From NCBI GenBank assembly GCA_037178675.1, contig JAYMGJ010000457.1:62001-126000 (forward strand): DNA of 64,000 nt. Reading direction: 5' to 3'. Position 1 is the stretch's first letter. Each line of letters starts with the position of its first letter. This document shows, one piece after another, positions 8,921 through 62,200 of the stretch. The notes under the pieces were generated by a model that was not told the DNA's origin, ran no database searches, and saw nothing but the letters and a program-made list of their open reading frames with translations. This stretch comes from Scleroderma bovista (lineage: Eukaryota > Basidiomycota > Agaricomycetes > Boletales > Sclerodermataceae). A program made the translations under genes and the position numbers.

Positions 8921-9002
8921 AGGGCTGTCTGTATCCCTCAAGTCAGGACTTGGCACTCTGCCATGGGTTCCTCCACTGGCGCTGTAGATGTCACACTGAC
9001 TG

Positions 9003-11540: not shown

Positions 11541-11576
11541 CTAGCGGATGGGTACGGGAATACGGGCTATCAGAAC

Positions 11577-14386: not shown

Positions 14387-15188
14387 TTTTCGGGCAATGT
14401 TGGATTTGAACCGACGACAGCAGCAGCACAACATGTCATCAGCAATCTACCATCGGCATAATAGAATTGCGGCATTACAAGAACGGCACAACATAAATAC
14501 TGGTAATGGCTGTGCAGCCATCGCACAGGTGCCACAATACCTTGCCGAGAATCACAAACATGCTGGAGTAATAGCCGTGCGGCCATCATGCTTGCATGTG
14601 CAGCAATATGGGAATGACCGTGCCATGTGGCAGTGTCAGCACAGTTGTGGACACCGGCATTTGCCACTGACATACTGGCTGGTGGCAGCCAGGCTGGTGG
14701 CTGTGCGAATAAGTACCACAATGATAACATTAAATTAATGATGGCCGTACCGCAATGACTGACATGCGGCATTGATCCCTTTCTCAAGCTGCGGCTGTGT
14801 TAATACATGCCACATCAATTGTTCCCTGAGAGACACACTCCAAAATAAGGCAAATCATAATGCCGATCCGAGATCCCTTATTATTGTGATGGGACAATGC
14901 ACTGTGACAGCCAATCACAAGCAATAGAAACGCGGCCATCATGCAATATGAAATGCGGCAGTGTGGTTCATTAGCCGAATTGTCAGGACAATGATTGGTC
15001 GGACTTGTGGCTGAATTAATAACCTATATTTGATTTAGTCCACTTTGGTGTGTGACCACAATGCAAACATGTTGTGGTGTGAAATGCTTATATAATACGT
15101 TGAACATCCTCCAGGCCGCACAGCAATCGGACCCAGTTCTTCCTCTCCTCAACCACTGCTTTACCATTTCCACATCCTTACAGTCTAT
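14387..15188. other. No gene recognised
   Basis: Many short words containing GCCGTGCGGC or CGGCAT on both strands, resembling decayed copies of the adjacent minisatellite. No ORF with credible composition. The last ~150 bp may contain the promoter of the gene at 15189. Confidence 0.5.
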
Positions 15189-17140
15189 ATGGCAACTTCA
15201 GAAGGTTCTCAGTTCGTCTCCACCTCATCCGTTCAAGAGGACGTGTCAACGGCTACGTCCCTCACTGCAGAAGAAGTCGTCACCCAGGCCGCTGAAATAA
15301 TTCAAAGCCAGATTGATGGCTTGAGAAGCACATGGGAGAAGGGTGTATGGTCAGAAGCAGTGTCAACTATCTGGGCCCAGGTGGTGCGTGGCAAATTTAT
15401 CTGCAATCAATCAACTCACTGATTAGGATATGATAGCGCCGGGTTGAGAATGTCCTGCAGGAGTTACCTGCAGGATTCATTATACCGACTATCATCGTTG
15501 CTGCCGACCAGTTTATGGAGGCGCCAGAGGTGATCCTGTCGACAGGGAAGTGGCCTCTTAACGCCACGGACCACGATATCTGGGACCATCCCTGGTTCCA
15601 ACTAGGCAAGCCACAGAAGAAGGTGGACAAGGGAAAGAGGAGAGCGGTAGAGCCATTGGGGAACAATGCAGTGGCAGGACCATCGGGGGTAAAGGAGACA
15701 GAGGTGCAAGGCAGTCGTGGCCAAGTAGGTGAGCCCAGCGAAACTGAGGACTCACAAGCAGTGCCAGAAGGAGGCCGTGCCATCGAGGATGATGAGGTGC
15801 CTAGGGGCCGCAGTCGCAGTCGCAAGCCGAGGAAGAGTGCCCAATCTGTCGCAACGATCAACAGCGATGGTGATGATGAAGAAGCCTCATTGCAACCATG
15901 GCCAAAGCGACCAAGGCCAAACGTTCGCGACATGCAGACACCAGACGCAGGCTATGAGTGGGTGGATGACAAGGATCGCTGCATCAAGTGCGTACAGCGA
16001 GATTGACGGTGTGCAGCGAACCCAGGCCGTGCTTGCTGGCAATGTTGCTGCAGCAAGATTGCATGCAGTATGATGACAGCAGTCAGAGCGAGGTCAAGGT
16101 CACGTTCACAAGCACCGAGGAAACCTGCACTGCATCGGCATTCACCATCTGCGCCCTCAACGCTCAACCGAGGAAGGTCACAGCGTGCAAAAAGCCAACG
16201 TCAGACCCTGGCACCAGCAGTGGCCAATCCGCCCAGGAAACCAAGTAAGTTGTTCATTATTCGAACAATTTAATATTATTTCTATTGATATTCCATCCAG
16301 TTTTTGATGGGGTACTGATCAATACTCCAGCATGGCTAGGGAAGACATCGAGGATGGCAAGTCCATCGTCAATGGCCACCGGCAGTGGCACGAATCCTCC
16401 CACAACACCGGGAGACAGTACAAATACGTCGAATATACAAGATCTCGAGGAGGAGGTTGTCCGTTTGAGGGAAAAGCAGGCCGAAACGGAACGAAAGGTG
16501 GACGAAGCAAATGCAAGATTGGCCATCGCGCTCGGAGAAGTCGCCAGCTTACGGCAGGTGGTTGAAGCGATGCGGGAACAGCTGTTCCCAACACCATCCC
16601 ATCTTCAACATCCGGCATCGCAGCAGGCATTCGCACCGACACAGCCGGCATCTGACTCAACATGTCCCGAGGTCTCACAGTGCGCTCACCCCAGTCCGCC
16701 AAGCCCGTTGGCACTAGCGCCTACCACAATGCTGGAAGAAATGGCATCGTCCAACAATCCGTCCTGACATGGCTCGAGCGAGCCGACCGGCACCCATGGT
16801 ATGCAGGTTGCGCTGTGCAACAATGCCTCAAGTCTGGAGGTGGCAACTCCAGGCTTGGTCAATGAAAGGGGTGCCAGCAAGCCAACTGGTGATAGCTATG
16901 ACTGGGCCCCACCAAAAGGTAAGTCTGTCAATTACCAAGCCATGTGCTACTGATCACAAGATTGTGTTGTTGACAGCAATTTGTGATGAAGTGGCCGCAA
17001 CCATAGAGACCGGCAATATTCCGGAAATCGAGGTCAGCCCGCCGGAAGATGGAGATGTTGGGCCGGCATCCGATATGGAGATTGGGAGTTCCGATGCCGA
17101 TGCCGGGCATGATGCCGGTGTGCAAATGGAAACGGACTAA
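15189..17140 (+). pseudogene. Cys-cluster plus coiled-coil protein gene, decayed
   Basis: Multi-exon plus-strand gene starting MATSEGSQF at 15189. Introns inferred in phase: about 15379-15434, 16225-16279 (GTAAGT...CATCCAG) and 16918-16976. The product has an acidic/Ser-rich N-terminal half, an Arg/Ser-rich stretch and a cluster CIKC-x6-C-x7-C-x2-C near 15985-16060, with the cysteine order of fungal Zn2Cys6 DNA-binding domains. A heptad-like coiled coil (LEEEVVRLREKQ...) follows, then an acidic tail ending METD. Two in-frame TGA codons break it (after CVQRD, near 16003; and before HGSSEP, near 16765). Its layout resembles the accessory gene inside Gyp2. Regulatory function is inference only. 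Confidence 0.6.
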
Positions 17141-18240
17141 TTTTCTTTTATCATACCTACGTCTTTTGTACAATTTCCACTTCCTATTCCATGTATACCA
17201 TATACATCACATTGTAAAGTATATTTATGCATGTAGAGTTGTCCTTGTGAATCATTGACACAGCCTGAGAACTCTGTCAGAGACATGCCAGTAATGGTCT
17301 CAACCACAGCCATGAATGCATTGCCAATATGTCGCCGGCACATCCCAAATTTACCTGTGGAGTAACTTTTCAACGTTACTGATATACATGAATACCAAGA
17401 GCAGGCTAGATATGTCCTACAGATGTAACTATAATTGCCATGTATGGCGGCATCAAGTATTGGAAGGAGCAACATACTTTTAATCCACTGGCACAACACA
17501 ATCAGCAGAACATACAAGGGAGAACATACACTCGGCACTGCATCGGCACATACAATTGGCATACAATTGGCACAACCATTGGCGGCATTACATCCATGCC
17601 GCTGCAACAGTGATCAGCACTTGCATAACATTGGCACTTGCAAACCATTCGCACAAGACACTATCGGCACAGCAACATCAGCACAACATACCACTGGCAC
17701 AACATACCATCAGCACAACATACTATCGGCACTACATACTATCGGCACTACATACTATCGGCACTACATACCATCGGCACTACATACTATCGGCACATCA
17801 CACTTGTGACACAGCACACTATTGGCACTATGTACATGATACTATCCCAATCTTTTGCCGGAAAATGCAAGATTTACCTTTGCAGTAATTCTTCGATGTT
17901 ACCGATATACATAAATAGCAAGAGTATCTATAATTGCCGTGGATGGCGGCATTAGGTGTTGATTGAGGTAACATACTGTAATCAGCACAGCATTCCATTG
18001 GAACATGCATACGGTAGACAATCGGTACACACCCCGGCAGCAGGACATACATTTGTAATACCATCAGCACTTGTATAACATCGGCACTTGCCGATACCTT
18101 TGGCACAACACACTATCAGCAAATCTTTCCAGTGGTGAGATAAATGAACTATATATGGAAACCATTATTATATAATCATTCAATTGTGATTTCCATTCCA
18201 TGTCAATTCCATCTTGTCAACTTGCATCTTTGCTACCGCT
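17141..18240. repeat. Intergenic DNA with 17-bp minisatellite
   Basis: Between about 17490 and 17835 a unit of period 17 built around ACATACTATCGGCACTA is repeated, most regular at 17690-17790. Looser copies extend to 18130. A sequence around GGAGTAACTTTTCAACGTTACTGATATACAT near 17360 recurs with changes near 17882 (short extracts shared, not a gene). No credible ORF. Confidence 0.65.
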
Positions 18241-27600: not shown

Positions 27601-30600
27601 ATGGCAAAGTCCAAGATACAACCTGCTGGTAGCTCTACTCCGGTGGTTCATGTAACATGGCAGGCATTCAAATCAAGGAGGGGATCTATTGATAAGATGG
27701 TGAAGGCAATGCCCCAAAAGAAGGCCCGTCATGGAAAAGCTCCTTCAAATGACACTCCGACCCAGTCAGCATCTATAGGATTAGAACAATCCCAACTGTT
27801 TCCAGATGATGGCCAGCCATACATTTCCATGGATGATCTTCCACCCTGAAAGAGAACAGGTGTGTCAAAGAATCAGGTGTGTGATTTATTCTGATCCTGC
27901 ACTTGCCATGTCCTCCTGAAGGCATAATAGGACAGTTACTTATTGGCATGGTTGCCATACAAGCAGAGGTACCTCCAGGTCCTTCTGGACATGGAGGCAC
28001 CCCCTCACCCAAGGGTCTGCATGTTGTGTCAAGGAGATGGCACGTACAGATGCGCCGAATGCATCCACCAGCCCTTGCTCTGCAGTTCCTGTTGCAGAAA
28101 GGAACACAAGTTGCGGCCCTTCCACCGGGTGGACCAATGGAACGGTACATTCTTTGAGGAATCATCGTTACGACTGGTGAGTCATCAATTCTACGTGGCA
28201 TACAGCAACAACTCATTTAGAAGGCTGGGTTGGTGGTACACCTTGGCCATGGTGGGGATCCGTGTCCGAATGGCGGGATGGATGGTGAGGACATTGCTGG
28301 TGATGTTGAGGATGAATGGGAGGATATTCAGGACCAACCAAGACCACATCATCTTTCTGGAGGAACGGACAGGTCTTGCCTAACTGTAGTGCATACATCT
28401 GGGGTACATTTTTGTGATGTGAGGTATTGTAACTGTCCAGATGCAGGAGCTTTGCATTTGCAGTTGGTCAAAGCAGGACTCTTCCCAGCAACTACAAAGG
28501 AACCTAGGACTGTATTCACCTTCCAAGTATTGGATGACTTCATTATGGATAATGTGGAGTGCGGCACCTCTGCCATGAATTATTACAGCAAGCTTTGGCA
28601 AGTCACATCCAATGCATTTCCCAGCCTTGTACCGGTGAGTTCAAAGCATGATATTAAGGACCCGATGACACCACCAACACTGATCCAAGAACAGATACAG
28701 AGAGCTACTCAGGGTGTCGAGGATGTGGAGGCTGTTAAAGCTGTTGAAATGGCAAGGTTTTCATCCAGGGTCTCCTGATCCCAAGAGGGGGGAATTGGTG
28801 CTGTTCTGTCCGGCATGCCCACAACCAGGAGTAAACATTCCATCCAGTGAAGATATAGACCTCTCAGAGTAAGTAATGTTTTATTTTTACTTGTACTTAT
28901 TGAGCAGCTGCGCGATATAGGTGGAAATATTCTAGGACCATCGTGATGGATGGAAACTTCAAGGCCGAGCATATGCGGCCAAAGAATTCAGCTAATGAAG
29001 TTTGGCTCATGGACGGAATGGGATTCATGGTTACAATGCCGGAATATAAGGATTATCTGGCCAGAACATTGAACCGGGTCGAGGTTTGTGATTGCACATG
29101 TTTACAATACGGTTCAGCATTGTAATGGAATTCACAGAAATCTGACTGTAGCAACCATCAAGCAGTAAACCAGGCAAATGCTAAAAGAAATCAGCATGCA
29201 ATGGTTGACTTTCAGAAGGGAGAGCAGTATGTGCCGACATGTTGCATGCATTCCACCCTAACAGGAAGATAGGCAGGTAAATATGGATTATGCTCTGGCA
29301 CATGCCGTGCAACATGGGATGGATCTGCAACAAAAAGTCATAACCTTTTATGACATCAATTGCCAATACAGCAAAAACCTAAAGCGCTGGCTAGAAGCAA
29401 ACAATTTTATATCCTTACCACCTGGGCTATGGATTCAACCTAGCATTGGGCTCTGGCATGTACATGGTCACAAGGCAGAATGTTTCACCTGATATGCTCC
29501 CAATTTCATTTCTGGTGTAGGCCACGTCGATGGTGAAATTATGGAGACTCTCTGGTCCTCTCTTAACATCATTTCACCATCGGCCCGCAGAATGGCAACG
29601 CTGCATAGACAGGAGCTGCTTGATTTTCAAATGAATGACAACAACTTCTTAAAGATGGTGCGGATGCGTGAGTGGTATCACAATATCTTGCAGATTTTGG
29701 GTGAAGTATGCCAACAACATATTGCACAGCCATCTCCCTGAAAAGAAAATTGAAGAATGCTCAAGAGGCACTCATGTCCACGGAAGGAGCATTTGCGGAG
29801 CTTGATACAAGGGTTCCAGTCGAGTTGCATGAGCTTTGGGCACAGCAAGAGAAATCAGCTTTGGAGAATAGGGCTACTGATCCAAAATCAATGGACATAT
29901 TTGAGGTGCAGCTGGAAAAAGGTATTTACTTGCTTGGCTGATTTCAAACCAATTTGACGTATATGACAGCTCAAATAACGAAGTCGATCGAAATGGATAT
30001 TATAAGTAATCAGGGACCGGATGGTCGTATGCATGGGGCAGCAACATGGATGGCAAGGGTATTGAAAGCCGAAGAATCACAAATTATTTTGGCCATAGAT
30101 GTCCGCCACATTCATGCAAGGGCGATGGAAACACAAAGGTTGTCTATTGCCTGCTGGCAGGACCGCCTGCAGATGCAAATTGATTGGCTCTGTGAATCAG
30201 CTTCCCAATTTCTAGGCGAAGATTGGAATGAGGACATCTTGGATAATCTCATTTCCACAACGGACATCAATGAAGGTGATGGTGAAGATGTATTTTCAGA
30301 CACATTCCACCCACAAGATCCCAACTACTCGGATGCTGTGGTACTGCCCTTGCCATCGTACCTGGGGATGCAGCAAGCCGATAGGTTGGGGCTTTTAACC
30401 ATGGTGGATCAGGAGTTACGATTGAGGGAAGGTCAGGCCAACGATGCTCTACATGAACTAAGGGTTTCGCTGGCACACAAGGCAGTCATCTTCCGGACCG
30501 ATGTCAGACATGCCGGGACATACAATATGACTACGAGGGCCTGGGGGAAGGTGGGTAGTGCCGATGTGAAAGTGCAGCAGCATGCGGCAATATATCGTCG

Positions 30601-31789
30601 GTGCCGGAAACAAATGATAGCATTGAATGCAAGCGGCAACACATTGAACCGATACAAAATGTTGAGGAAAGAAGACCTAAAGATCAGTGCAACCATTGCC
30701 AACCCAAATGCAAGGGGTCATAGGGATGACACTTTGGCCTGGTTTTGGACAATGGATGTGCCGTGGGATACAGAGGTCAATGACACTGCAAGCATTTCTC
30801 AATGTTTTATGACAAAACATTGTAAAAAAATAGAAGAAAGAGATACTCTTTTATTTACAATTTTGTTTAACAAAAAAGACAAATATCATACAGCATCATT
30901 TTTGTTATTTTTTGTGTCAAGGCATGATTTGAGATCATTTCTTATGTTGGGAATATAAAAAATTTAACCTTTTTCTTCTGCCTGTTCCTTGCAGAACAAA
31001 TAAAGAAAAAATAATGTAACTTTTCTCACAGCAAGCATTTTCAATTTTCTGGAGTGAGCAATTGAATCAAAAGATATTCTATTCTATAAAAATAAATGTT
31101 GAGGAAACATGCTATATATTTTTGGTCATAACACTCTAGCCAGCCAATCAGCATCCAGGAACAACCATGTTTCTTGAAGAAAAAATTGCTGTTTTCTTTC
31201 AACATATTTTGAAGAATAATATGGTATCTTATTTCCAATACAACATGCCAAAATGCTTGCTATGAGAAAATTTACATTGTCTTTTCTGTATTTGTTTTGC
31301 AAGAAACAGGCAGAAGAAAAATGTTAATTTTTTTATAGTCCTAACATAAGAAATGATCTCAAATCATGTCTTGACACAAAATATGACAAAAATGATGCTG
31401 TATGATATTTGTCTTTTTTGTTAAACAAAATTGTAAATAAAAGAGTATCTCTTTCTTCTATTTTTTTACAATGTTTTGTCATGAAACATTGAGAAATGCT
31501 TGCAGTGTGATTGGATGTCTGAATGTAAGATGATTGCTCCTCATGTTAACACCGGCTGACATGTATAGTTTACCGGGTGCATTGGTTGAGGGCAAAAGCA
31601 TTGCGAGACAGGTGGGACGAAGAGGTAAAACTATTGACATGTGAAGCCACCTGGACAAGACAATTTCTTTCGTATAGGGAAACACTTTGGAGAGATCAAA
31701 AGGAGGAGGCTAATATGAGCGGAGAGATGGGGAGAGCATGCTATGCAGCAAAGCAATATCAAATGTATGGTAGACTTGGTTGTGTATGA
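27601..31789 (+). pseudogene. KDZ transposase gene K1 with CxC cluster, decayed
   Basis: ATG at 27601 (MAKSKIQPAG). Introns inferred in phase: 27877-27930, 28177-28220, 28635-28689, 28869-28920, 29084-29151, and a final one of about 44 nt near 31527-31570. The N-terminal cysteine cluster has CMLC-x6-RCAEC...CSSC and the second hallmark FCPACPQPG. KDZ core blocks: VMDGNFKAEHM, FYDINCQYSKNL, GLWHVHGHKAECF, DGEIMETLW, and a C-terminal VHWLRAKALRDRWDEEV. KDZ transposases are DDE-type enzymes of class II elements. Damage: TGA at 27847-27849 and 29490-29492, a roughly 55-bp deletion near 29192 relative to K2, and a MITE at 30784-31507. K2 reads CGA where K1 has TGA at 29490. Confidence 0.85.
30784..31507. 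mobile_element. CACTA-like non-autonomous element in K1
   Basis: 724 bp flanked by TGA on both sides (30781-30783, 31508-31510). Ends are CACTGCAAGC and its complement. The inverted repeats are very long, about 265 bp each, with scattered mismatches. K2 has the empty site (AATGATTGG), proving insertion and a 3-bp duplication. CACT ends with a 3-bp duplication fit the CACTA/CMC superfamily. It is strongly AT-rich and has no ORF. Confidence 0.88.
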
Positions 31790-50609: not shown

Positions 50610-51240
50610 TGTCAAGTCCGGGTCTACTCCGGTAGGGGGTCCGGTCAAGTCCGGACGAAAGCGGACGAGAGGGGAGGTCAGAGGTTTGGGCAGAGGTTAG
50701 CCCGGGCCGGAGTTGCGACCGTTTGGATTCAACGACAAGGACGGCGAGCGTTGATCCCTTGCGTAGGTTCCGGTCAGACGGAGATAGAGACGGAGACGGA
50801 CAGAGGATCAGGAGTAGTGACTTAGATGATTTCAGACTGAGGTGTACAAGGTAAACTGGAGGGTACTTATACTAAGTAGAACTAGGGTCGAGTACATACG
50901 GTGACAAGTAAACAACCTAATAGCGGACAAGGGATGACCGGAGTTAGGACTAGGTCAGGTCCGGTGAAAATAAAGTCAGGTCCGGATAAAATAAAGTCAG
51001 GTCCGGTGAAAATGCTACAAGGTATAGGATATATCGAGTTCACGGAGAACTCACGTCAAGGCAGGGCAGACGGCGAAGTGTAGTAAGAGTGAATGGAGTA
51101 TAGACCAAGGGTCGTACTTAACGGAAGGTTATCGGCGCGTCCGTGACCGGAGTAAGTGACGAGCGACCGGAGTTGAGCTAGAGAGCTGCGACGCGACCGG
51201 AGCGACCGGATGAGACCTGGAGTTGGACATGGTCGTAACA
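50610..51240 (-). repeat. Gyp2 3' LTR
   Basis: On the element strand TGTTACGACCATG...CCGGACTTGACA. Rich in the word CCGGA. Near-identical to 57885-58515. Confidence 0.95.
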
Positions 51241-51253
51241 GTATCCCCCTTTT
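51241..51253 (-). other. Gyp2 polypurine tract
   Basis: On the element strand AAAAGGGGGATAC directly abuts the 3' LTR, as expected for the plus-strand primer. Confidence 0.75.
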
Positions 51254-51347
51254 AGGGGCCGAACCCATGAGGCCCCAACGAGGTGTCGTGTGGTCGCCTA
51301 ACACAATGCGGAGTCCGGAGTGGTTGTCTGAGTACGAATTTTGGATC

Positions 51348-51354
51348 TATAAAG
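51348..51354 (+). promoter_or_regulatory. TATA box of the Gyp2 accessory gene
   Basis: TATAAAG, 48 bp before the accessory ATG and outside the LTR. A start about 30 bp downstream would leave a leader of about 20-25 nt. Confidence 0.5.
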
Positions 51355-51401
51355 ATCAGACCGGTTTTGCTTTCACCCCCAGTTTTCTGCCTTCTACCAA
51401 C

Positions 51402-52487
51402 ATGTCCGCACCAGCCAAGCCTACCACCCCCGCCGCTACTTCCACTGTCGAGTCCAAGGACTGGACAAAGGCCACCACACCGGAGCTACTGTCCGGTAGC
51501 GAGGACGAGTCGAGCGTTCTCGACGCGAAGGCGAAGGAGCGTCGTCGCCGCAAGCAGGTGAGGAGAGAGGAGAGACAGCGTCGGGAGGCGGAAGAGAAGA
51601 GAGCACGCGAGGAGGCGGAGCGTGCAAAGGCGGAGGCAGAGCGAAAGGCAAGGGAGGAGGCGGAGCGCAAGGTGCGAGAGCAGGCGGAGAAGGAGAGGGC
51701 GGAATCGCAAGCGAGGGCGGAGTCGGAGCAGAGAAAGGCGGCGGAGGTGGCTGCCAAGCAGAGGGCGGTGGAGGTAGCCGCCAAGCAAAAGGAAACGGCG
51801 CAGGAGGCGTCGAAGAAGAGAGCAAGGGAGGAACCGGAGGCACGTCCGGTAGGAGAGGCCCGGTAGGTTTTATTTTATTCTATTTCTGCTTTTGTTTTGC
51901 TGACTGCTTTTGGTAGATGCGTGCGTTGCGCAAAGCATCGCGCAGTGTGCGAGCGCGACCCGGAGAAGCCAAAACAGCGGGCGTGCATGAAGTGCGCCGG
52001 CCTCAAGGAGAAGTGCGAGTGGCCGGAGGTGGGGGGTCCCGGTCCGGTAGTGAACAAAGGCAAGGGTAAGGCGAAGGAGAAGGAGGTGGCGACGTCACCG
52101 CGAGGCGGTGAAAAGCGGAAGAAGAAGAAGCTGGCGAAGGTCGTCAACGACGACGACGAGGTTGTGGAGGTGGCAGGCCCATCTGGGTCAAGGTCCGGTT
52201 TCAACACCGGGCCTTTCTTGGAGCGGATGGACCGGCTGACAGCCGCGGTGGAGGCGATGACCAGACAGATGGCCCGGATCGTGGACTCCACGCGGTCCGT
52301 ATCCCGGTCCAACGACCGACTCAGCGCCGGCCTCGAAACCTTTTTCGAGGAGTGCCGGTTCTTTACAACGGACTTTGCCAGGTCGGAGGAGGAGAGTGAC
52401 GAAGAAGTCGATCCAGAGGAGATTGACCAGGAGTTGGAAGGGCTCCAGAAGGACCTGGAGGAGCAGGAAGGTCCTGCGCCGGAGTAG
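51402..52487 (+). CDS. Gyp2 antisense accessory protein, Zn2Cys6-like
   Basis: Two exons, 51402-51862 and 51917-52487, with a 54-nt GTAGGT...GGTAG intron; spliced length 343 residues. Start MSAPAKPTTPAA. Regions: a Ser/Thr-rich start; a long Arg/Glu/Ala coiled coil (about residues 45-150); then CVRC-x6-C-x12-C-x2-C-x5-C, very close to the fungal Zn2Cys6 DNA-binding pattern; a Lys-rich basic patch; a helix around MDRLTAAVEAMTRQM; and a strongly acidic tail. It lies on the strand opposite gag-pol, between pol and the 3' LTR, and converges on pol with 163 bp of A/T-run DNA between. The frame is undamaged. A role in DNA binding or control of the element is inference; capture of a host gene is the alternative. 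Confidence 0.8.
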
Positions 52488-52650
52488 GTAGTCCGGTCCG
52501 GCGCCTTGTAAATAGAAACTGTACTTTTTTTTTTTTTTTAGTTATGAAAGGTTTTTTTTTTTGTTTATAAGAGAAAAGTTGACTGGACTGGAGAGTGATA
52601 TTACTTGAGACAGAGTGAAACAGATAAAAGAAACGGAGGCGAGAGTAATA

Positions 52651-55600
52651 CTACATGGACGCGAGTGGTCCGGGTTTGTCCGGGTACCAGACATGATAAT
52701 CTTCTAGTAGTTCCGTAGCGTTGCCTAGTTCAGTGGCGAGTAGCCAAGACGTTTCTTCGTCAGTTCCTTCGTAACCGGACCAACGCACCAAGTAGAGTAA
52801 CTTGCACGTTTTGCGTCGACGGTCAACCTTGGAGTCGAGGATCTCAGCGATCTCGAACTCCGGTTCACCATCTACTTCGACCGGTGGCGGAGGAGGTTGT
52901 ATCCGGTCTGGTATGGTGTTGGGTATGGCCGGTTCGAGTTGGGAGACATGGAAGACGGGGTGAACTGCGCGCATGGAATCTGGAAGACGGAGCGTAAAAG
53001 AGAGGGAGCCTACTTGCGCGATGATAGTGTAGGGCCCCAGGTTCTTCTCTGATAGCTTTTTGGATGGTCGTGTTGACCGGAAGTATTTGGCTTTCACGTA
53101 CACTTGGTCGCCAACCTTGAAGTCCGGTGCCGGAGTACGTTTGGCATCAGCCGGACCTTGGTAGCGAAGTTGCGCGTTGGCCATTTCTTCTCGAAGATAT
53201 TGATGTAGTGACTCGAGGTCGACTGCGTAGTCACGAGCCCGTGTAGAGGTCATATCGCGCTCCGGATAGACGGAGATGTTAGGATGATAACCTTTGTTAG
53301 CGAAGAATGGTGAGACTCCGGTGGTAGCACTAGGTGCGTTATTATAAGCAAACTCCGCCAAAGGGAGTAGGTCCGCCCAGTTGTCCTGCTGGTAGTTGCA
53401 GTAGACGCGGAGGTATTGTTCGAGTGTCTGGTTGGATCGCTCTGTCTGGCCATCGCCCTCCGGGTGGTAACCGGAGGTGAAGTGGAGGCGCATGTCGAGG
53501 GCTTTTCCGAGTGACCGGAAGAAGTGGGAGACGAACTCGGTACCGCGATCTGAAGTGACGTGGGCGGGAACACCGTGCTTGGAGAATACATGGAGTAGGA
53601 AGAGCTTCGCGAGCTCCGGGCTAGTGATGGTGTCGTGAGTAGGAATGAAGGTGGCCTGTTTAGAGAGCCTATCTACTACGACCAAGATAGCTGTGAATCC
53701 GGTAGAGGCAGGGAGCTGCTCTATAAAGTCCATGGATATGGAGTTCCAAGGTCTTTCCGGGACAGGGAGCTGTTTTAGTAACCCATAGGGTCGGTGGCGC
53801 GGTGTCTTAGCTCGAGCGCAGGAGGTGCATGACCGGACGTAGTCTTTGACGAAGGTCCTGAGGCCAGGCCAGGTATACTTACGCCGGATTAGTTCCAGAG
53901 TCCGGTTTTGCCCAAAGTGGCCAGAGAGTGGGTGATCATGGTGATACCGGAGTACCCGGAGACGGAGACCGTCCAGGTCCGGTACATAGATGCGACCATC
54001 TAGGCGGAGGAATCCTGCCTCATCTGCGGACCAGCGAGAGTCCGGAGGGTCAGAGAGGTGGATCTGGGCAATGGGATCTGAGGGGAGAGCAGATAAGATG
54101 TCGTTGTGGAGTGTTTCCACGTCCATGATGGCAACTGCTCGACGGAGGACCGGAAACTCTAGAATGGTTGCGCGAAGGGAGTTAGTCAGTTGTTCTTGGG
54201 TGAACACCGGCCTGAGATTTTGTGGATTAACACGGGCGTAGCCACTATCCCCCTCTTTGGGGTAGACGTCCCATCGTCTAGTGAGAGCGTCCGGCTTGGC
54301 ACCGAGTTTTCCGGGGCGGAAACGAATGACGAGGTTAAACTGGGAGAGAAATTCAGACCACCGGGCTTGCCGGCGGGAGAGGACTTTGGAGGTAGAGAAA
54401 TACTCTAGGTTCTTGTGGTCGGTGACGACGTCAATAGGGGAGGCGGAGCCTTCAAGGTAATGGCGCCAGTTCCGGAATGCCTCGAAGATGGCAAGGAGTT
54501 CCTTATCGTGGGTGTCGTAGTTCAGCTCCGGAGCAGTCAAGGTCCGGGAGTAGAATGCTACCGGACGAATCTCTCCGTCGGAGCAAGTGATAGACAGGAT
54601 ACCAGCGACTGCGTAGTCGGAGGCGTCCGTTTCCACGATGATAGGGGTGTCCGGAATAAAGTGAGTGAGTATGGGCGCGGTAGTGAAGGCGTGCTTGAGA
54701 GCATTGAAAGCGCGTCGACAGTCCTCGGAGAAGACCCAAGGAGCATCTTTCCGGGTGAGCCGGGTGAGAGGGACCACAATGTCGGAGTAGTTGAAAATGA
54801 ACCGGCGGTAGAAGTTGGCAAATCCCAAGAAGGACTGAATGTCCTTTACCTTACGAGGTTCAGGCCAATCAGAGATGGTTTGTATTTTGTCCGGAGACAT
54901 AGTCAGACCTTCAGGGGATAGACGGTAGCCAAGGTATTCCACTGAGTCCGAGTGGAACTCGCACTTCTCCGGTTTGGCGAAGAGGCCATGTAACCGGAGT
55001 CGCCGGAGTACCTCCCGGACATGCTGCTGGTGAGACTCCATATCCTCGGAGTAGATGAGGATGTCGTCGAGGTACACGACGACACAGACATCCAGCATGT
55101 CAGCAAAGACGGTGTTGACAAAGCGCTGGAATGCTGCAGGGGCGTTAGTGAGGCCAAAGGGCATTACTAACCACTCGTAGGACCCATAGCGCGTACGGAA
55201 GGCGGTCTTCCATTCATCGCCCGGAGCAATCCGGACTAGATGGTACGCGTGCCGGAGGTCAATCTTGGAATAGATTTTAGCACGGCTGGGTGAGTCCAAT
55301 AGATCAGAGATAAGGGGGAGTGGGTAGCGATCCTTCTTGGTGATTTTGTTAAGGCCTCTAAAGTCAACGCATAGTCGTAAGGAGCCGTCCTTCTTTTTAA
55401 CGAAAAGGACCGGAGCAGCGTGAGAGGAAGCGGTAGGGCGAATGAAACCTGTAGTGAGATTCTCATCGATGAACGTCCGGAGAGCGGAGAGCTCGACCGG
55501 AGACAGTGAGTAAAGGGTTCCCAGGGGTGGTGAAGTACCTTCTTCGAGTTCGATCTTCAAATCGTAATCGCGATGCGGGGGAAGTTCAGAGGCTTTCGCC

Positions 55601-56376
55601 TTACTGAACACATCCGCATAATCGCGGTATTCCGGAGGGACGATGTCCAAGTCCGGCGGAGTTGATATAGAAGAAGACCGGGCCTTTGCTGAGTCCACAG
55701 GACGCAGCTGGAGTTGGTACTTCGTGGATCCTTCCAAACTGCACGCACGCACGAATGCTGCTGCGTTGATTAGAGAGATAAGCGGAGGGTTGCAAACCGG
55801 AGTGTCGACAGATGGCACGAGGCCTGGGGTAGACTGGCCGGAGAGGCCGGAGTCAGAGTTTCCGGGCAGAACCGGAGAGGGAGTCGACGGGGGCGCTGGC
55901 AAACTTCCTGCAAGAGTCCGGAATGTTAAACTACTCAATACCCAGTCAATCAACGGATTATAGCGGGTGAGCCAGTTATGTCCAAGGACAATCGAGCATT
56001 CAGAATCCAACGGAGCGAGATAAAAAGTCATGGGGGTGACATCACCGGATGCGGGGAACTGCACTGATAAATCGATAGCTTGAGTAATTACATAGTTTGA
56101 TGTACCGTCGAATAACCGGAGTTGGACGGGAGAGACGGAATAGGAGGTAAGGTTGTTTTTGTGCGCGAATTGTAAATCTACAAAGCAATGCGTGGACCCG
56201 GAGTCCACAAGTGCGCGGATTTTAGGTATATCATGAGATAAAAGAGAAACATAAGGCATAAGAGAGTTTGGGTCGAAAAGAGCGGACGCGTTGAGGCGGG
56301 CCTCCTTGGGTGCACTTCCGGAGTCAACGCAGCTCGCCGGTTGTGCGGAGGGCCGGGAGCTGCTTACTCTTTTTTT
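52651..56376 (-). CDS. pol: Gyp2 Pol polyprotein with chromodomain
   Basis: Entered by -1 frameshift at 56370-56376; the first in-frame ATG is at 56259. Protease (ALVDSGSTHCF) lies near the start. RT carries VVYLDDILIYS, RNase H has ETDASDYAVAG, and the integrase zinc segment reads GHFGQ...SCTSCARAK. The core has Asp in SMDFIEQ, Asp in SDRGTEF and Glu in DGQTERSN. A GPY/F segment (KNLGPYTI) and a terminal chromodomain (LYLVRWSGYEGTDEETSW) follow. About 1240 codons with no stop. Reverse transcribes and integrates the element; the chromodomain places it in the chromovirus clade. Confidence 0.95.
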   Translation of the reverse strand, partial: KKRVSSSRPSAQPASCVDSGSAPKEARLNASALFDPNSLMPYVSLLSHDIPKIRALVDSGSTHCFVDLQFAHKNNLTSYSVSPVQLRLFDGTSNYVITQAIDLSVQFPASGDVTPMTFYLAPLDSECSIVLGHNWLTRYNPLIDWVLSSLTFRTLAGSLPAPPSTPSPVLPGNSDSGLSGQSTPGLVPSVDTPVCNPPLISLINAAAFVRACSLEGSTKYQLQLRPVDSAKARSSSISTPPDLDIVPPEYRDYADVFSKAKASELPPHRDYDLKIELEEGTSPPLGTLYSLSPVELSALRTFIDENLTTGFIRPTASSHAAPVLFVKKKDGSLRLCVDFRGLNKITKKDRYPLPLISDLLDSPSRAKIYSKIDLRHAYHLVRIAPGDEWKTAFRTRYGSYEWLVMPFGLTNAPAAFQRFVNTVFADMLDVCVVVYLDDILIYSEDMESHQQHVREVLRRLRLHGLFAKPEKCEFHSDSVEYLGYRLSPEGLTMSPDKIQTISDWPEPRKVKDIQSFLGFANFYRRFIFNYSDIVVPLTRLTRKDAPWVFSEDCRRAFNALKHAFTTAPILTHFIPDTPIIVETDASDYAVAGILSITCSDGEIRPVAFYSRTLTAPELNYDTHDKELLAIFEAFRNWRHYLEGSASPIDVVTDHKNLEYFSTSKVLSRRQARWSEFLSQFNLVIRFRPGKLGAKPDALTRRWDVYPKEGDSGYARVNPQNLRPVFTQEQLTNSLRATILEFPVLRRAVAIMDVETLHNDILSALPSDPIAQIHLSDPPDSRWSADEAGFLRLDGRIYVPDLDGLRLRVLRYHHDHPLSGHFGQNRTLELIRRKYTWPGLRTFVKDYVRSCTSCARAKTPRHRPYGLLKQLPVPERPWNSISMDFIEQLPASTGFTAILVVVDRLSKQATFIPTHDTITSPELAKLFLLHVFSKHGVPAHVTSDRGTEFVSHFFRSLGKALDMRLHFTSGYHPEGDGQTERSNQTLEQYLRVYCNYQQDNWADLLPLAEFAYNNAPSATTGVSPFFANKGYHPNISVYPERDMTSTRARDYAVDLESLHQYLREEMANAQLRYQGPADAKRTPAPDFKVGDQVYVKAKYFRSTRPSKKLSEKNLGPYTIIAQVGSLSFTLRLPDSMRAVHPVFHVSQLEPAIPNTIPDRIQPPPPPVEVDGEPEFEIAEILDSKVDRRRKTCKLLYLVRWSGYEGTDEETSWLLATELGNATELLEDYHVWYPDKPGPLASM

Positions 56377-57815
56377 GACTCGGAGTTGGCACCCGAGTTA
56401 GTAGAGTCCGTTTTACCGGACTCAGCAGCGACGGCCGCAGCGCGAGCCTTGGCCTTTTTGGACTTCTTTGGACAGTTGTCCGCGAAGTGTCCGGTACCTC
56501 CACAGAACATGCAGAGGTTGTTTTCGAGCCGCCGTTTGCGCTCGTCAGCAGTCAGCTTCCCGTCCTTACCAAGCTTGTTGGTTAAGTCCGGTTTGGAACC
56601 GGACGAGGACTGGTTGCTGGTCGGTTTTGACGAGCCAGAGGTGTTGGCGGAGCTGGGGGAGTTGCCGGTCTTGGCTTGACCGGACTTGGGGGTGTTGCCT
56701 CCGGAGTTGGAGGGCTTGGGAGTGGACGAGGTAGGCTGGCTCTTCGTCGTACGGGAGATCTCGTCTTTGCGCTCCCAATAGCGCGCGTCGATCTCTTGAC
56801 AAAGGGCTCTCAACCCGTTTAGAGTCAGGGGTTTCCCGACTCGTGCAATCTCATCCTTGAGACGGTCCGGTAAACCGGAATAAAATAGGCGACGGAGTGC
56901 GCCATCTCCATAGTCTTGGACCTGCGAAGCAAGACGGTTGAAATCTACGATGTACCGTGTAACACGGTACGAGTCTTTCATCCGGAGATGCTCGAGCTGG
57001 TGCTCAGCATCAGCAACTGGGTCGTGAGGTCCAAAGGTACTTTGGAGTTCTGCGACAAAGTGGACCCAGCTGTCCATCCAGCGCGGACGGTCAGCCGGAT
57101 TGCCGGAGTTGAGGAGGTCCGGTTCGAACCATTCCAGTGTCATACCTTTTAGATAGGACTGGGCGAACGTCACCCTTGCCCTATCTTGGCGGAAAGCTTT
57201 GGCGCGATCCTGGAAACATAGTTCGCACTGGACCAAGAAGGTCCGGAGTTTCTTGGGGTCCGTGCCATCGAAGGTGTCCGGCTCACGGACCTTGGCGCGG
57301 GAGGAAGAGGAGTCGCTGGTACGACGAGAGGAGCGGGAGAGGCGGTTGACAGCGACAGCGAGATTGTGGAAGACAGCCAGACCAGGGTCTAGCTCCTCCG
57401 CGGCGTCGAGAAATTCATCATCGTTGTTGTTGTTGTTGTTGTTGTTGTTATCGTCTCCGGGGTCGTCCGGATCATCTCCGGGACCATCCTCAGGGCCGAA
57501 CCATTGGAAACGACCGGATTCGCGACGTTCCGGAGTGGGGTCGCGACGGTAGGGGAAACGATCACCAGAGGCGGACTCATGGCGACCTGGGTCTGCAGAA
57601 CCACGAAGGCTCTGAGACGCAGCGTCTCGACGCGGAGTCAGAGGCGCTGTGGGGTTTCGAGCTGTGAAGCTCCGGAATTGGCTAACGGAAGCCGGAGGTT
57701 GCCTGCGGTTAGACAGGGCTTGCTGGGCAGCAGAAAGGTGGAGATCATTTACTGCACCTGCTTCTTCAGCGAGTGCGGCAGCAGTACGAGCGCGAGAGCG
57801 CGTAGTCATGGTCAT
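56364..57815 (-). CDS. gag: Gyp2 Gag
   Basis: Start placed at 57815 (MTMTTRSRARTAAAL) because the upstream frame would begin inside the LTR. 483 residues. A disordered N-terminal third includes an asparagine run encoded by GTT/AAC repeats near 57422-57448. Then the Gag core (FDGTDPKKLRTFLVQCELCF; FNRLASQVQDYG), a Ser/Thr/Asn-rich region and one CCHC knuckle CMFCGGTGHFADNCPK. The end is a lysine-rich tail coded partly by the slippery A7. Confidence 0.95.
   Translation of the reverse strand: MTMTTRSRARTAAALAEEAGAVNDLHLSAAQQALSNRRQPPASVSQFRSFTARNPTAPLTPRRDAASQSLRGSADPGRHESASGDRFPYRRDPTPERRESGRFQWFGPEDGPGDDPDDPGDDNNNNNNNNNDDEFLDAAEELDPGLAVFHNLAVAVNRLSRSSRRTSDSSSSRAKVREPDTFDGTDPKKLRTFLVQCELCFQDRAKAFRQDRARVTFAQSYLKGMTLEWFEPDLLNSGNPADRPRWMDSWVHFVAELQSTFGPHDPVADAEHQLEHLRMKDSYRVTRYIVDFNRLASQVQDYGDGALRRLFYSGLPDRLKDEIARVGKPLTLNGLRALCQEIDARYWERKDEISRTTKSQPTSSTPKPSNSGGNTPKSGQAKTGNSPSSANTSGSSKPTSNQSSSGSKPDLTNKLGKDGKLTADERKRRLENNLCMFCGGTGHFADNCPKKSKKAKARAAAVAAESGKTDSTNSGANSESKKE
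56370..56376 (-). promoter_or_regulatory. -1 frameshift slippery site of Gyp2
   Basis: On the element strand seven A residues read A AAA AAA in the gag frame, followed by GAG and TAA. A one-base slip enters the pol frame, which is open from this point through protease. Confidence 0.75.
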
Positions 57816-57872
57816 GAGGAAATGGAAACTAGTTTGCGTACGAGGTTTGTATAGTGAACCCACACAAGTGTG

Positions 57873-57882
57873 AGTCTGAAAT
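57873..57882 (-). other. Gyp2 self-complementary primer binding site
   Basis: On the element strand ATTTCAGACT lies two bases after the 5' LTR. It is the exact complement of AGTCTGAAAT inside the LTR (58104-58113), about 33 bp downstream of a TATAAGTA box (58139-58146). Same layout and same 2-bp spacing as Gyp1. Confidence 0.8.
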
Positions 57883-57884
57883 AC

Positions 57885-58515
57885 TGTCAAGTCCGGGTCT
57901 ACTCCGGTAGGGGGTCCGGTCAAGTCCGGACGAAAGCGGACGAGAGGGGAGGTCAGAGGTTTGGGCAGAGGTTAGCCCGGGCCGGAGTTGCGACCGTTTG
58001 GATTCAACGACAAGGACGGCGAGCGTTGATCCCTTGCGTAGGTTCCGGTCAGACGGAGATAGAGACGGAGACGGACAGAGGATCAGGAGTAGTGACTTAG
58101 ATGATTTCAGACTGAGGTGTACAAGGTAAACTGGAGGGTACTTATACTAAGTAGAACTAGGGTCGAGTACATACGGTGACAAGTAAACAACCTAATAGCG
58201 GACAAGGGATGACCGGAGTTAGGACTAGGTCAGGTCCGGTGAAAATAAAGTCAGGTCCGGATAAAATAAAGTCAGGTCCGGTGAAAATGCTACAAGGTAT
58301 AGGATATATCGAGTTCACGGAGAACTCACGTCAAGGCAGGGCAGACGGCGAAGTGTAGTAAGAGTGAATGGAGTATAGACCAAGGGTCGTACTTAACGGA
58401 AGGTTATCGGCGCGTCCGTGACCGGAGTAAGTGACGAGCGACCGGAGTTGAGCTAGAGAGCTGCGACGCGACCGGAGCGACCGGATGAGACCCGGAGTTG
58501 GACATGGTCGTAACA
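57885..58515 (-). repeat. Gyp2 5' LTR
   Basis: Promoter LTR: on the element strand TATAAGTA, then the predicted transcript start CAGTCTGAAATC. Ends CGGACTTGACA. Confidence 0.95.
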
Positions 58516-58869
58516 CACAGTCAACACTCCGGCAGGATCCACATCCCGGCAGTCAACAGGCTGGCACAATCAACACTCCGTCGGCACCATCATTAGTCTG
58601 GCCCAGTCAACACTCCGGCACACTCAACCCTCCGGCACAGGCAACATTGCGGCCGAGCCAACACTGTGGCACAATCATCATTTCGGCACAATCACCATTC
58701 TGGCTCAACATTGCGGCAGAGTCAGCCCTCCGGCACAATCAACTGTTCGGCACAATCATCATTCCGGCACAGTCAACATTCCAGCACAATCAACAATTCG
58801 GCACCATCATCATTGCGGCACACGCTGCTGGAAACATCCTGACACGCCGCTACACAACAGCATGATTGA
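58516..58869. repeat. 17-bp minisatellite (CGGCACAAT type)
   Basis: About 18 diverged units of period near 17 built around CATTCCGGCACAATCAT. Related in period and core (CGGCA) to the arrays at 14170 and 17490. Confidence 0.75.
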
Positions 58870-59291: not shown

Positions 59292-62200
59292 TCATACACA
59301 ACCAAGTCTACCATACATTTGACATTGCTTTGCTGCATAGCATGCTCTCCCCATCTCTCCGCTCATATTAGCCTCCTCCTTCTGATCTCTCCAAAGTGTT
59401 TCCCTATACGAAAGAAATTGTCTTGTCCACGTGGCTTCACATGTCAATAGTTTTACCTCTTCGTCCCACCTGTCTCGCAATGCTTTCGCCCTCAACCAAT
59501 GCACCCGGTAAACTATACATGTCAGCTGGTGTTAACATGAGGAGCAATCATCTTACATTCAGACATCCAATCATTGACTTCTGTATCCCGCGGCACATCC
59601 ATTGTCCAAAACCAGGCCAAAGTGTCATCCCTATGACCCCTTGCATTTGGGTCGGCAATGGTTGCACTGATCTTTAGGTCTTCTTTCCTCAACATTTTGT
59701 ATCGGTTCAATGTGTTGCCACTTGCATTCAATGCTATCATTTGTTTCCGGCACCGACGATATATTGCCGCATGCCGCTGCACTTTCACATCGGCACTACC
59801 CACCTTCCCCCAGGCCCTCGTAGTCATATTGTATGTCCCGGCATGTCTGACATCGGTCCGGAAGATGACTGCCTTGTGTGCCAGCGAAACCCTTAGTTCA
59901 TGTAGAGCATCGTTGGCCTGACCTTCCCTCAATCGTAACTCCTGATCCACCATGGTTAAAAGCCCCAACCTATCGGCTTGCTGCATCCCCAGGTACGACG
60001 GAAAGGGCAGTACCACAGCATCCGAGTAGTTGGGATCTTGTGGGTGGAATGTGTCTGAAAATACATCTTCACCATCACCTTCATCGATGTCCGTTGTGGA
60101 AATGAGATTATCCGAGATGTCCTCATTCCAATCTTCGCCTAGAAATTGGGAAGCTGATTCACAGAGCCGATCAATTTGCATCTGCAGGCGGTCCTGCCGG
60201 CGGGCAATAGACAACCTTTGTGTTTCCGTCGCCCTTGCATGAATGTGGCGGACATCTATGGCCAAAATAATTTGTGATTCTTCGGCTTTCAATACCCTTG
60301 CCATCCATGTTGCTGCCCCACGCATACGACCATCCGGTCCCTGATTACTTATAATATCCATTTCGATCGACTTAGTTGTTTGAGCTGTCATTATAATACA
60401 TCAAATTCGTTTGAAATCAGCCAAGCAAGTAAATACCTTTTTCCAGCTGCACCTCAAATATGTCCATTGATTTTGGATCAGTAACCCTATTCTCCAAAGC
60501 CGATTTCTCTTGCTGTGCCCAAAGCTCATGCAACTTGACCAGAACCCTTGTATCAAGCTCCGCAAATGCTCCTTCCGCTGTCACGCACCAAACAGGTTTG
60601 GTACAGTGAACATGGAAGATAACGCCTATATTGAATGATCCTTATGCGAAGGATAAGCACGACGGACCCTCATCGTAGCCATCTATCGCACAAGACGACT
60701 ATCCTGATGCGAGAGATGAATGCCAATGCAGACAGTCATCTATCGCACGAGAACCGCCAAGAAGCAGAAGAAACTGAAGGAATAACGTCAATTGTGGTAT
60801 GAGAAAGGAATGCACACGTCTGCAGTCCAACTCCCATACCAGAACGATCAAAGAAGCCGAAGAATTGATGGAGAAACGAAGGAGAAAGAGAAGAAATGAT
60901 TTTTAGCGCCCAAATGTCATTTTTAGGCGCCCAGTGCCAGCATTCCGATATTTTGAATAGCTCCGTCGTTTCTGAAGCTATCAGGCACGTGACTATACCA
61001 TCAGAGAGCCTAGAACGTGGTCTATCTGCCTGTCAAGTTCCGACGCAAATCCGTTCATTTCCCACGGAGATATTCCCCCCGCAATCCAGACGTTCGCTTC
61101 ATCGCTCACTATGGAGTCTGTATTTTCTCTGGATCATTTCTCCGCTATTGCTGCAGATCTCCACTATGTCCTGCTCTTAGGACAGCCTCTCCCAGAGTTC
61201 CCGTGCACTGCCTGGCACATATCTTCCCAGCCTGCTCCCTCAGTCCCTCTCGTTCTCGGTCAGCGCATTCTCCTCGTCAGTCCTGCGTCAAGGACGTACT
61301 TTGGTCATCTTAGGTCTATTGTCAAGCTTGAGAAGTCTTCTCTGGTCGTCTCTGTGTCCCCTAAGCCCTCAGCCTATGGTCCCTTCCTCCCAGATACTTG
61401 CCATGTCCATCTTCCTCTGTCGTTCGTCTCACTTCCCTGGATGCGTCGAATTCAATACTCTATCCGCTTCCCTACTTTCAGACGACGTCCCCCAGCACCA
61501 TGACAGTTATTCCCCCCACTTTATAGTGCTATTAGGAAGAAGAACCCTCTCTCGTTCTTTCCCAGAAGAGAGCTCGTCAAGGGAGCCCATGGTTGCGCTT
61601 CAGCGGCGCTAGAACACATGCACTATACCTTAGTGTATGCTGACCCCCCAAAAAGACCTCTGGACCCCTGGTACCCTTCTTGTGGCTGTTTTGTCTCGGA
61701 TCAATCCCCCTATTAATCCCAGATCTTCCCCATTGTTGTCCCATCAAATTCCTGATGGTACACAGCCCCCCCATCAAACTTCTTAGGCTGTGCATCAATG
61801 ACTCCTTCTGCTGTGCAGTGACTCATCCCTTGCTTACTGATGCTCTCTTGTCATCAGTATTACTCTATCCCTTTCGCATTTTTGGTATATTACTCAGCTG
61901 ATGACTCACTCCCTTACCAATCAATCTTGTCATGCAGCTTACTCATTCCTTTACTCAGCAGCTTATTCATGCTTCCTATGCTTACTCATTCCTGCTTATC
62001 CCTTGCTTACTGATCGCTTACAAACCCCTTACAAAGCTCTTACCAATCCCTTACCAATCCTTGACAAATTCTGCTTACTCCCTTCTCTTTTTGTACTTTA
62101 ATGCTGTGCCCCCCCATGTATTTAAACCCCTGGGCTCAGCCCAGTGAAGAAGACCCAATTGCACGAAATTATCCCTCTCTCAGACTCTCTCAGTCAGTAT

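What the first reader, a model, noticed from the sequence alone, without database searches (positions are those of the whole stretch)
50610..58515. Chromovirus carrying a spliced antisense Zn2Cys6-like gene
Seen: between pol and the 3' LTR of Gyp2 lies an intact two-exon gene on the opposite strand, with a TATA box outside the LTR, a 54-nt intron, a coiled coil, a C-x2-C-x6-C-x12-C-x2-C-x5-C cluster and an acidic tail. The LTRs differ by one base, so the gene moved with a recently active element. Extra ORFs are known in some plant LTR elements. An antisense, intron-bearing zinc-cluster gene in a fungal chromovirus is not something I know as described. It could regulate the element, its host, or be captured cargo.
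Basis: partly seen in the sequence, partly recalled or inferred. Interest (0 to 1): 0.9.

Follow-up and report, generated by a model that had tools for sequence, protein, structure and literature searches.

The report
Retrotransposon with a backwards zinc-cluster gene
A mushroom jumping gene carries a second, backwards gene for a likely DNA-binding protein, and its whole sequence is evenly dotted with a short motif that a related family has swapped for another, which suggests that the protein recognises its own element.

Summary

They are more even than any of 46 comparable 4-mers and, in pol, exceed synonymous-codon shuffles. CCGA is avoided. A sister family with a homologous but very different gene, and pol 87% identical over the stretch read, shows the reverse in the same codons (matched parts: Fisher p 7e-29). 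Two unrelated elements of the window show no comparable excess.

Best reading: a Gal4-type zinc-cluster protein that recognises its own family's DNA, most likely to keep it active against silencing; in logic like Arabidopsis VANC/VANDAL, but in a retroelement and inside codons. Binding, expression and function are inferred. Coding DNA of only one sister copy was read, zinc-cluster membership stays below Pfam's cut-off, and the youngest copies lack target-site duplications.

The parts
50610..51240 (-). 3' LTR of the element (element reads on the - strand), 15 CCGG sites against 3.1 expected
51241..51260 (-). candidate polypurine tract next to the 3' LTR (on - strand: CCCCTAAAAGGGGGATAC)
   Evidence: read from the sequence; not tested
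51348..51353 (+). TATAAA, 54 nt before the ATG of the antisense gene, outside the LTR; present in 44 of 45 spacers
51402..51862 (+). exon 1 of the antisense gene (N-terminus, charged stretch that reads as a coiled coil)
51863..51916 (+). 54-nt intron; in 34 of 45 modelled copies the best model has an intron of 42-57 nt at this place
51917..52487 (+). exon 2 (zinc cluster, basic linker, long helix, acidic tail, stop)
51918..52016 (+). Zn2Cys6-like cluster C-x2-C-x6-C-x11-C-x2-C-x6-C
52209..52367 (+). predicted 53-residue helix (pLDDT mostly 90-96), likely dimerisation coil
52371..52484 (+). acidic tail, the least constrained region (pN/pS 0.40)
52651..56397 (-). pol open frame: protease, RT, RNase H, integrase, chromodomain
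56364..57815 (-). gag, with a zinc-knuckle-like stretch (zf-CCHC 18.6 bits, below its cut-off of 20.8)
57885..58515 (-). 5' LTR of the element
50610..58515 (.). 141 CCGG sites spread evenly through the element (125 when one LTR is counted), preferred form A/T-CCGG-A

Best explanation
The antisense gene encodes a Gal4-type (Zn2Cys6) DNA-binding protein with a dimerising coil and an acidic, activation-like tail. It is made from its own promoter between the LTR and the gene, so it does not depend on LTR transcription. It recognises CCGG-core sites (A/T-CCGG-A) spread about every 57 bases over the element's DNA and acts in trans on its own family, most likely keeping chromatin open or activating the LTR against silencing by the host. 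A sister family carries a homologous but very different protein and CCGA sites instead, so each family has its own protein-and-motif pair. Shown here: the gene, its conservation and selection, the motif, its evenness, and its switch between two families. Inferred: that this protein is what reads the motif (I put about 0.75), and that the result is activation or anti-silencing (about 0.55 overall).
For: Gene kept: at least 164 places; 122 of 150 listed pol ends have a gene facing them, 118 of these at a gap of 140-230 nt. Selection: dN/dS median 0.17 in the 176 pairs with dS of 0.4 or more; zinc region pN/pS 0.17, the lowest. Motif: CCGG 141 against 44.3 expected; pol codon shuffles 66 against 35.7, z 6.8; in three pol blocks top or tied top of all 4-mers (z 4.3-4.4); dispersion 0.20, lowest of 46 4-mers. 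Nearly strand-symmetric (27 to 22 in the window), so more likely a feature of double-stranded DNA than of RNA. Preferential keeping: window against L048, CpG kept in 114 of 125 CCGG sites and 322 of 426 elsewhere, p 9e-5. Switch: same 1332 nt of pol, CCGG/CCGA 25/3 in the window and 2/39 in the sister family, z +4.6/-3.9 and -2.5/+6.4; matched parts 62/9 and 5/87, Fisher p 7e-29. The two protein families are homologous (hhalign probability 99.3). Zinc cluster: six of seven Foldseek hits are Leu3, Pho7, Put3 and Gal4 domains; Zn_clus matches 13 of 25 sister-family members. Gal4-type clusters read CGG triplets (recalled). 82 CpG decays between the LTR pairs of 10 elements, with 126 mismatches in all, suggest that the host methylates these elements.
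Against: No expression, binding or methylation data. Zn_clus does not match the window protein and stays under its cut-off in the sister family (best 19.7 against 21 bits). Foldseek E-values are 2.8 and worse, the models are weak (mean pLDDT 70.7 and 59.5), and the sister model finds no zinc cluster. After insertion CCGG decays as fast as other CpG (25 of 137 against 57 of 299, p 0.90), so no lasting protection is seen. Gene types A and B, about 30% diverged, keep the same motif. Coding DNA of only one sister copy was read (L056, L058). Single-block z values of CCGG (4.3-4.4) do not exceed the best 4-mer of one control block (GCAC in copia, 4.4); in gag CCGG reaches only 2.9 and CGGA leads, and in the gene's own exons it is 1.3 and 2.6. 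A control 4-mer can also be even (AGTG in copia, index 0.26). Weak CCGG-type excess exists elsewhere: window 24500-50000 z 4.1, copia ACCGGA 7 against 1.8, copia CCGGT z 3.5. Evenness is not significant in L047, L052 and L043 (three of nine elements).
Confidence: 0.55

Rival explanations
1. The protein binds the dispersed motif but limits the element: a self-repressor or copy-number control, like antisense regulators of some retroviruses.
For: Same anatomy and motif data. The antisense HBZ of HTLV-1 and plant antisense ORFs are discussed as regulators (PMC11963269, passages).
Against: Acidic tail and Gal4-like layout suggest activation (inference). Evenly coating coding DNA is more than a repressor of one promoter needs (inference). 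The family is abundant: 275 exact LTR 30-mers.
Confidence: 0.15
2. The motif is read by something else (integrase, Gag, a host factor), and the antisense gene is conserved for another task.
For: Binding by this protein is not shown. pol also differs between the families (86.7% identity over 444 aa).
Against: The antisense protein is the element's candidate sequence-specific binder and differs far more between the families than pol does (about 30% identity against 86.7%). A host factor would not easily explain opposite motifs in two families of one genome.
Confidence: 0.17
3. Self-marking of cDNA or inserted copies to avoid self-integration (target immunity), or an aid to packaging or integration.
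For: Even coverage of the whole element, coding part included, would suit a coat or mark.
Against: Same-family LTRs do sit inside family members: in gag of L041 and in pol of L051. The gene's intron and separate promoter point to nuclear expression after integration (inference).
Confidence: 0.08
4. CCGG and CCGA counts reflect mutation or codon-pair bias, not binding.
For: CpG-containing words are affected by methylation and decay. A mild CCGG excess exists elsewhere in the window (142 against 109.4 outside the element; z 4.1 in 24500-50000).
Against: Two families in one genome have opposite biases. Codon shuffles keep protein and codon use. The non-coding LTR shows it too (15 against 3.1). 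CCGG is not less mutable after insertion. Copia and the other gypsy have CCGG near expectation (22 against 18.1, 23 against 18.8; codon-shuffle z -0.7 to 1.0).
Confidence: 0.04
5. One-off captured cargo without function.
For: None found.
Against: At least 164 places, dN/dS about 0.17, homologues in other species.
Confidence: 0.01

Closest known systems
VANC / VANDAL anti-silencing system of Arabidopsis (PMC5735166: abstract and Results read in part; PMC10398659: abstract)
   Same: A mobile element encodes a sequence-specific DNA-binding protein; short motifs are repeated through the element; related families have diverged proteins and different motifs.
   Different: VANDALs are DNA transposons (recalled); VANC motifs (YAGTATTAY; AGTTGTCC and AGTTGTAC) sit in non-coding regions, often as tandem repeats, while here a 4-base core runs evenly through coding and non-coding DNA. 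The proteins differ (DUF1985/DUF287 in VANC, zinc cluster here). Anti-silencing is shown for VANC, only inferred here.
Retand-lineage plant LTR retrotransposons with antisense TRP28 ORFs (PMC11963269, passages read)
   Same: Gypsy element with a conserved antisense ORF between pol and the 3' LTR, predicted DNA binding, suspected regulatory role.
   Different: Plant non-chromoviruses; TRP28 domain, not a zinc cluster; the word intron does not occur in that paper's main text, and the passages I read describe no element-wide motif and no motif switch.
Gal4-type Zn2Cys6 transcription factors of fungi (Pfam PF00172)
   Same: Six-cysteine spacing, two short helices after Cys1 and Cys4 in the model, following coil, acidic tail; CGG-type target (recalled).
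   Different: Element-borne, below Pfam's cut-off, first cysteine nearly at the exon junction, sites overlap as CCGG instead of spaced triplets.
TET/JBP-carrying DNA transposons of fungi (PMC12730594, abstract)
   Same: Fungal elements carrying a protein thought to help them escape methylation-based silencing.
   Different: Enzyme instead of a sequence-specific binder; DNA transposons.

Membership tests
Chromovirus (Ty3/gypsy, chromodomain integrase) | RT, RNase H, integrase in Ty3 order with a C-terminal chromodomain, LTRs | tested here: met
   (Chromo 25.7 bits against cut-off 25.1)
Zn2Cys6 (PF00172) proteins | CX2CX6CX5-12CX2CX6-8C spacing (pattern recalled) | tested here: met
   window C-x2-C-x6-C-x11-C-x2-C-x6-C; the sister family, C-x2-C-x8-C-x10-C-x2-C-x6-C, departs at the first loop
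Zn2Cys6 (PF00172) proteins | Match to the Pfam model over its cut-off | tested here: not met
   window protein none; 4 of 27 members of alignment A1 at best E 0.014; sister family 13 of 25, best 19.7 bits against 21
Zn2Cys6 (PF00172) proteins | Zinc-cluster fold | tested here: inconclusive
VANC-like anti-silencing systems | Element-borne gene plus repeated short motif in the same element | tested here: met
VANC-like anti-silencing systems | Protein and motif change together between related families | tested here: met
   two families only, one coding copy of the second
VANC-like anti-silencing systems | Protein binds motif and removes silencing marks | not testable with these tools
   needs EMSA/ChIP and methylome data
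VANC (DUF1985/DUF287) family by descent | VANC protein domains | tested here: not met
   no such Pfam match for the window protein or sister family
Retand antisense ORF | TRP28 (PF04195) domain | tested here: not met
   no PF04195 match

The most novel reading that the evidence does not exclude
The retroelement's whole genome, codons included, is written in a family-specific binding-site code that its own antisense zinc-cluster protein reads. Co-resident sister families use mutually avoided codes (CCGG against CCGA), giving each family private self-recognition and private control.
Probability: 0.5. Interest if true: 0.95.

Novelty: new variant of a known kind. Interest (0 to 1): 0.9.

Why it matters
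If right, this is a sequence-specific self-recognition system in an LTR retrotransposon. It extends the VANC idea to a fungal retroelement and into coding sequence, and it offers two co-resident families whose proteins and motifs differ together: a natural experiment on how zinc-cluster proteins change DNA specificity. The predictions (which protein binds which 4-base core) can be tested in vitro with two proteins and two DNA probes. It would also show how a selfish element can carry an intron: the antisense strand hides the intron from splicing of the genomic RNA (inference).

Tried and rejected
Rejected: cargo or one-off capture. Rejected: the open frame on the opposite strand as cause of the constraint, since differences peak at codon position 3 of the antisense gene (0.11/0.12/0.31 in exon 1, 0.14/0.10/0.30 in exon 2; 18 of 21 copies, L019, L020 and L034 dropped). 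Made less likely: an RNA-level motif, as ACCGGA and TCCGGT are near balance (27 to 22 in the window; but ACCGGA leads in eight of nine related elements, 216 to 161 in all). Tested and not found: lower post-insertion decay at CCGG. Weakened: 'gene cassette exchange'. L046 and L050 have gag and pol nearly identical to the window (gag dS 0.006 and 0, pol dS 0.036) but a gene only 68-69% like it in exon 2; L046 has the type-B cluster, and L050's cluster is broken. Neither has matching flanks, so assembly chimeras are possible. Gene dS is still about twice pol dS over 187 of 210 pairs (0.76 and 0.36).

Dropped rows: dN/dS used 21 copies passing length, cluster, intron (40-60 nt) and ATG filters, out of 47 loci plus window, with L012 dropped as the window copy; 6 of 210 pairs with dS 0.02 or less were left out. 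In 11 of 45 models the script chose an intron over 57 nt, several with poor donors (L016, L017, L022-L025, L027, L033, L046, L050, L054); these were thereby excluded. Three loci gave no model (L009, L036, L037). The intron search was confined to the expected place, so its position is partly by construction.
Full report
Observation. The element spans 50610-58515. Its two 631-nt LTRs differ at one base. gag and pol lie on the - strand; pol carries RT, RNase H, integrase and a chromodomain just over Pfam's cut-off. Between pol and the 3' LTR lies a + strand gene of two exons (51402-51862, 51917-52487) with a 54-nt intron that joins in frame to 343 aa. The zinc cluster is C-x2-C-x6-C-x11-C-x2-C-x6-C. 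TATAAA stands at 51348, outside the LTR. The flanks of this copy, TGATG and CACAG, show no target-site duplication.

Copies. The host genome (51.8 Mb, 850 contigs, unnamed) has 275 exact copies of the LTR's first 30 bases. Two protein searches, which score only part of their candidates, give at least 164 distinct places for the gene. Of 150 listed pol C-ends, 122 have the gene facing them, 118 of these at a gap of 140-230 nt. Of the 28 without, four (C96, C327, C372, C554) belong to the sister family and carry its gene, and one (C28) holds a remnant; 23 were not read. Two listed pol ends have a same-strand gene within 3 kb. Of 47 fetched loci (L009-L055; L012 is the window copy itself), 44 have pol next to the gene on the opposite strand; L009, L029 and L042 do not. 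Four of ten full-length elements have matching flanks (L039, L043, L045, L047).

Selection and anatomy. In 21 intact copies median dN/dS is 0.18 over 204 pairs, and 0.17 over the 176 pairs with dS of at least 0.4; for the 17 closest pairs (dS under 0.15) it is 0.32. The zinc region has the lowest pN/pS (0.17), the acidic tail the highest (0.40). Differences peak at codon position 3. The best splice model has an intron of 42-57 nt in 34 of 45 modelled copies, with GT..AG ends, usually a CTGAC- or TTAAC-like box before the acceptor, and diverged sequence between; the search was confined to that place. TATAAA is in 44 of 45 spacers. Over 187 of 210 pairs the gene has median dS 0.76 and dN 0.13, while pol (residues 809-1248) has 0.36 and 0.03, so the gene diverges faster than pol but stays constrained. 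Two cluster types occur, HRAVC and HKAKC.

Relatives. Homologues were found in Scleroderma citrinum (many), Melanogaster broomeanus (several), weakly Astraeus odoratus (E 1.2e-5), and in unnamed metagenome records; the listed 120 of 151 hits name no other organism, and that search scored only the 7992 best candidates. These are Boletales (recalled). The sister-type protein is also multi-copy in S. citrinum, so both types look older than the species split (inference).

The motif. The element holds 141 CCGG sites against 44.3 expected from its dinucleotides; with one LTR counted, 125 against 40.9. The LTR alone has 15 against 3.1. The copia (22 against 18.1) and the other gypsy (23 against 18.8) of the window are near expectation; the window outside the element has a mild excess, 142 against 109.4, strongest in 24500-50000 (z 4.1). 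Preferred forms are ACCGGA/TCCGGT (49) and TCCGGA (20); copia has a weak excess of ACCGGA too, 7 against 1.8, and of CCGGT (z 3.5). The two strand forms are 27 and 22 in the window; ACCGGA leads in eight of nine related elements, 216 to 161 in all. Sites lie 6-11 per 500 bases in all 14 full bins. The dispersion index of 0.20 is the lowest of 46 4-mers with 40-140 copies (median 1.18). Of nine elements, not independent of each other, seven have an index of 0.49 or less and six have p under 0.05; L047 (p 0.07), L052 (index 0.67) and L043 (1.31) do not. Shuffling synonymous codons leaves the excess: in pol 66 against 35.7 with SD 4.4, z 6.8. By block of up to 1332 nt CCGG has z 4.3, 4.4 and 4.3 in pol and 2.9 in gag, and CCGA has -3.1, -3.7, -3.8 and -4.1. 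In five control blocks the best 4-mer reached 2.6-4.4, while CCGG lay between -0.7 and 1.0 and CCGA between -2.4 and 0.9; so no single block is beyond the control maximum, but the same word recurs in each. In the gene's own exons CCGG has z 1.3 and 2.6.

Conservation of sites. Between the window copy and L048 (86.8% identical) 109 of 125 CCGG sites are shared, against 23 of 41 CGCG, 26 of 39 GCGC, 29 of 42 TCGA and 22 of 33 GGCC. CpG is kept in 114 of 125 CCGG sites and in 322 of 426 elsewhere (p 9e-5). The same comparison with L045, L039 and L047 gives p 0.01-0.02. After insertion, judged by LTR pairs of ten elements, CCGG decays like other CpG (25 of 137 and 57 of 299, p 0.90). So the sites seem to be kept by selection while the element replicates, not by low mutability. 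The 82 CpG decays, with 126 LTR mismatches in all, suggest that the host methylates these elements (inference).

The switch. A sister family (L056, L058; more than 50 places at 70% identity or more) has pol 86.7% identical over 444 aa and a homologous two-exon antisense gene (hhalign probability 99.3 over 260 columns, part of them charged low-complexity sequence) with cluster CDRCRRSGNSGGCELADGARTPTCSRCQRSKIKC. In the same 1332 nt of pol the window family has CCGG 25 (expected 14.1) and CCGA 3 (14.5); the sister has CCGG 2 (6.7) and CCGA 39 (19.9). Over matched parts the counts are 62:9 and 5:87 (Fisher p 7e-29); the sister sites are again even (250-base bins, index 0.21, p 0.003; at 500 bases p 0.06) and symmetric, 46 to 41. 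For comparison CCGG:CCGA is 22:32 in copia, 23:43 in the other gypsy and 142:249 in the rest of the window. Two further sister-type LTR pieces, in L044 and L036, lean the same way (2:12 and 0:6). Of 30 window-type loci (L009-L038, whole fetched pieces) 29 have more CCGG than CCGA; the exception, L036, contains a sister-type LTR piece.

Mechanism. Steps shown: gene, promoter-like TATA, intron, selection, motif, motif switch between two families. Steps inferred: transcription after integration from the gene's own promoter; a dimeric zinc-cluster protein; binding to the family's core; and as the effect activation or anti-silencing. The antisense position would let the gene keep its intron, because splicing signals are invisible in the genomic RNA, and let it act when the LTR is silent. 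Repression, a different reader of the motif, and self-marking remain possible. Same-family LTRs inside L041 gag and L051 pol speak against full self-immunity.

Known systems. VANC of Arabidopsis VANDAL transposons binds short motifs in non-coding regions, often tandem repeats, causes loss of methylation, and differs between families with its motif (PMC5735166, Results read in part; PMC10398659, abstract). Plant Retand elements carry antisense TRP28 ORFs between pol and the 3' LTR, with predicted DNA binding and unknown function (PMC11963269, passages). Fungal DNA transposons carry TET/JBP enzymes (PMC12730594, abstract). Nine searches of the open-access library (of these I saw the top listings only, one search returned no paper, and most subscription journals are not held) showed no paper on a fungal chromovirus with an antisense zinc-cluster gene and none on an element-wide motif code in coding sequence.

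Noticed in passing
G000:C300:7427-7900 and 8 further places: A third multi-copy family with a 399-aa (in one place 279-aa) open frame, about 34-36% identical to the sister-family protein; its DNA could not be read.
   Followed up: no
window 8000-18000: CGGC and TCGGCA/ATCGGC are over-represented (TCGGCA 22 against 3.4 expected, both strands), possibly a satellite or tandem repeat.
   Followed up: no
window 58518-58820: Imperfect 17-nt tandem repeat (CAGTCAACACTCCGGCA type) right beside the element.
   Followed up: no
window 2151-7202: Copia-like element with excess of GCAC and TGCA in codon shuffles (z 4.4 and 3.9 in single blocks) and an evenly spread AGTG (index 0.26); overall counts far weaker than CCGG in the element here.
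   Followed up: partly
window 24500-50000: Mild CCGG excess outside the element (z 4.1 by dinucleotide expectation); which sequences carry it was not looked at.
   Followed up: no
window 29942-30958 and 59522-60400: Two related long open frames (MTAQ(I/T)TKSIEMDIISNQGPDGRM...) on opposite strands, some 29 kb apart: another repeat family.
   Followed up: no
L046, L048 and the window element: The three elements with 0-1 LTR differences all lack matching 5-nt flanks; of seven older ones four have them and three do not: assembly joins or recombination between copies.
   Followed up: partly
L042: A gene copy with no LTR, gag or pol match in 9.8 kb; in the script's model it reads open for only 66 aa: a stray, decayed copy.
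   Followed up: no
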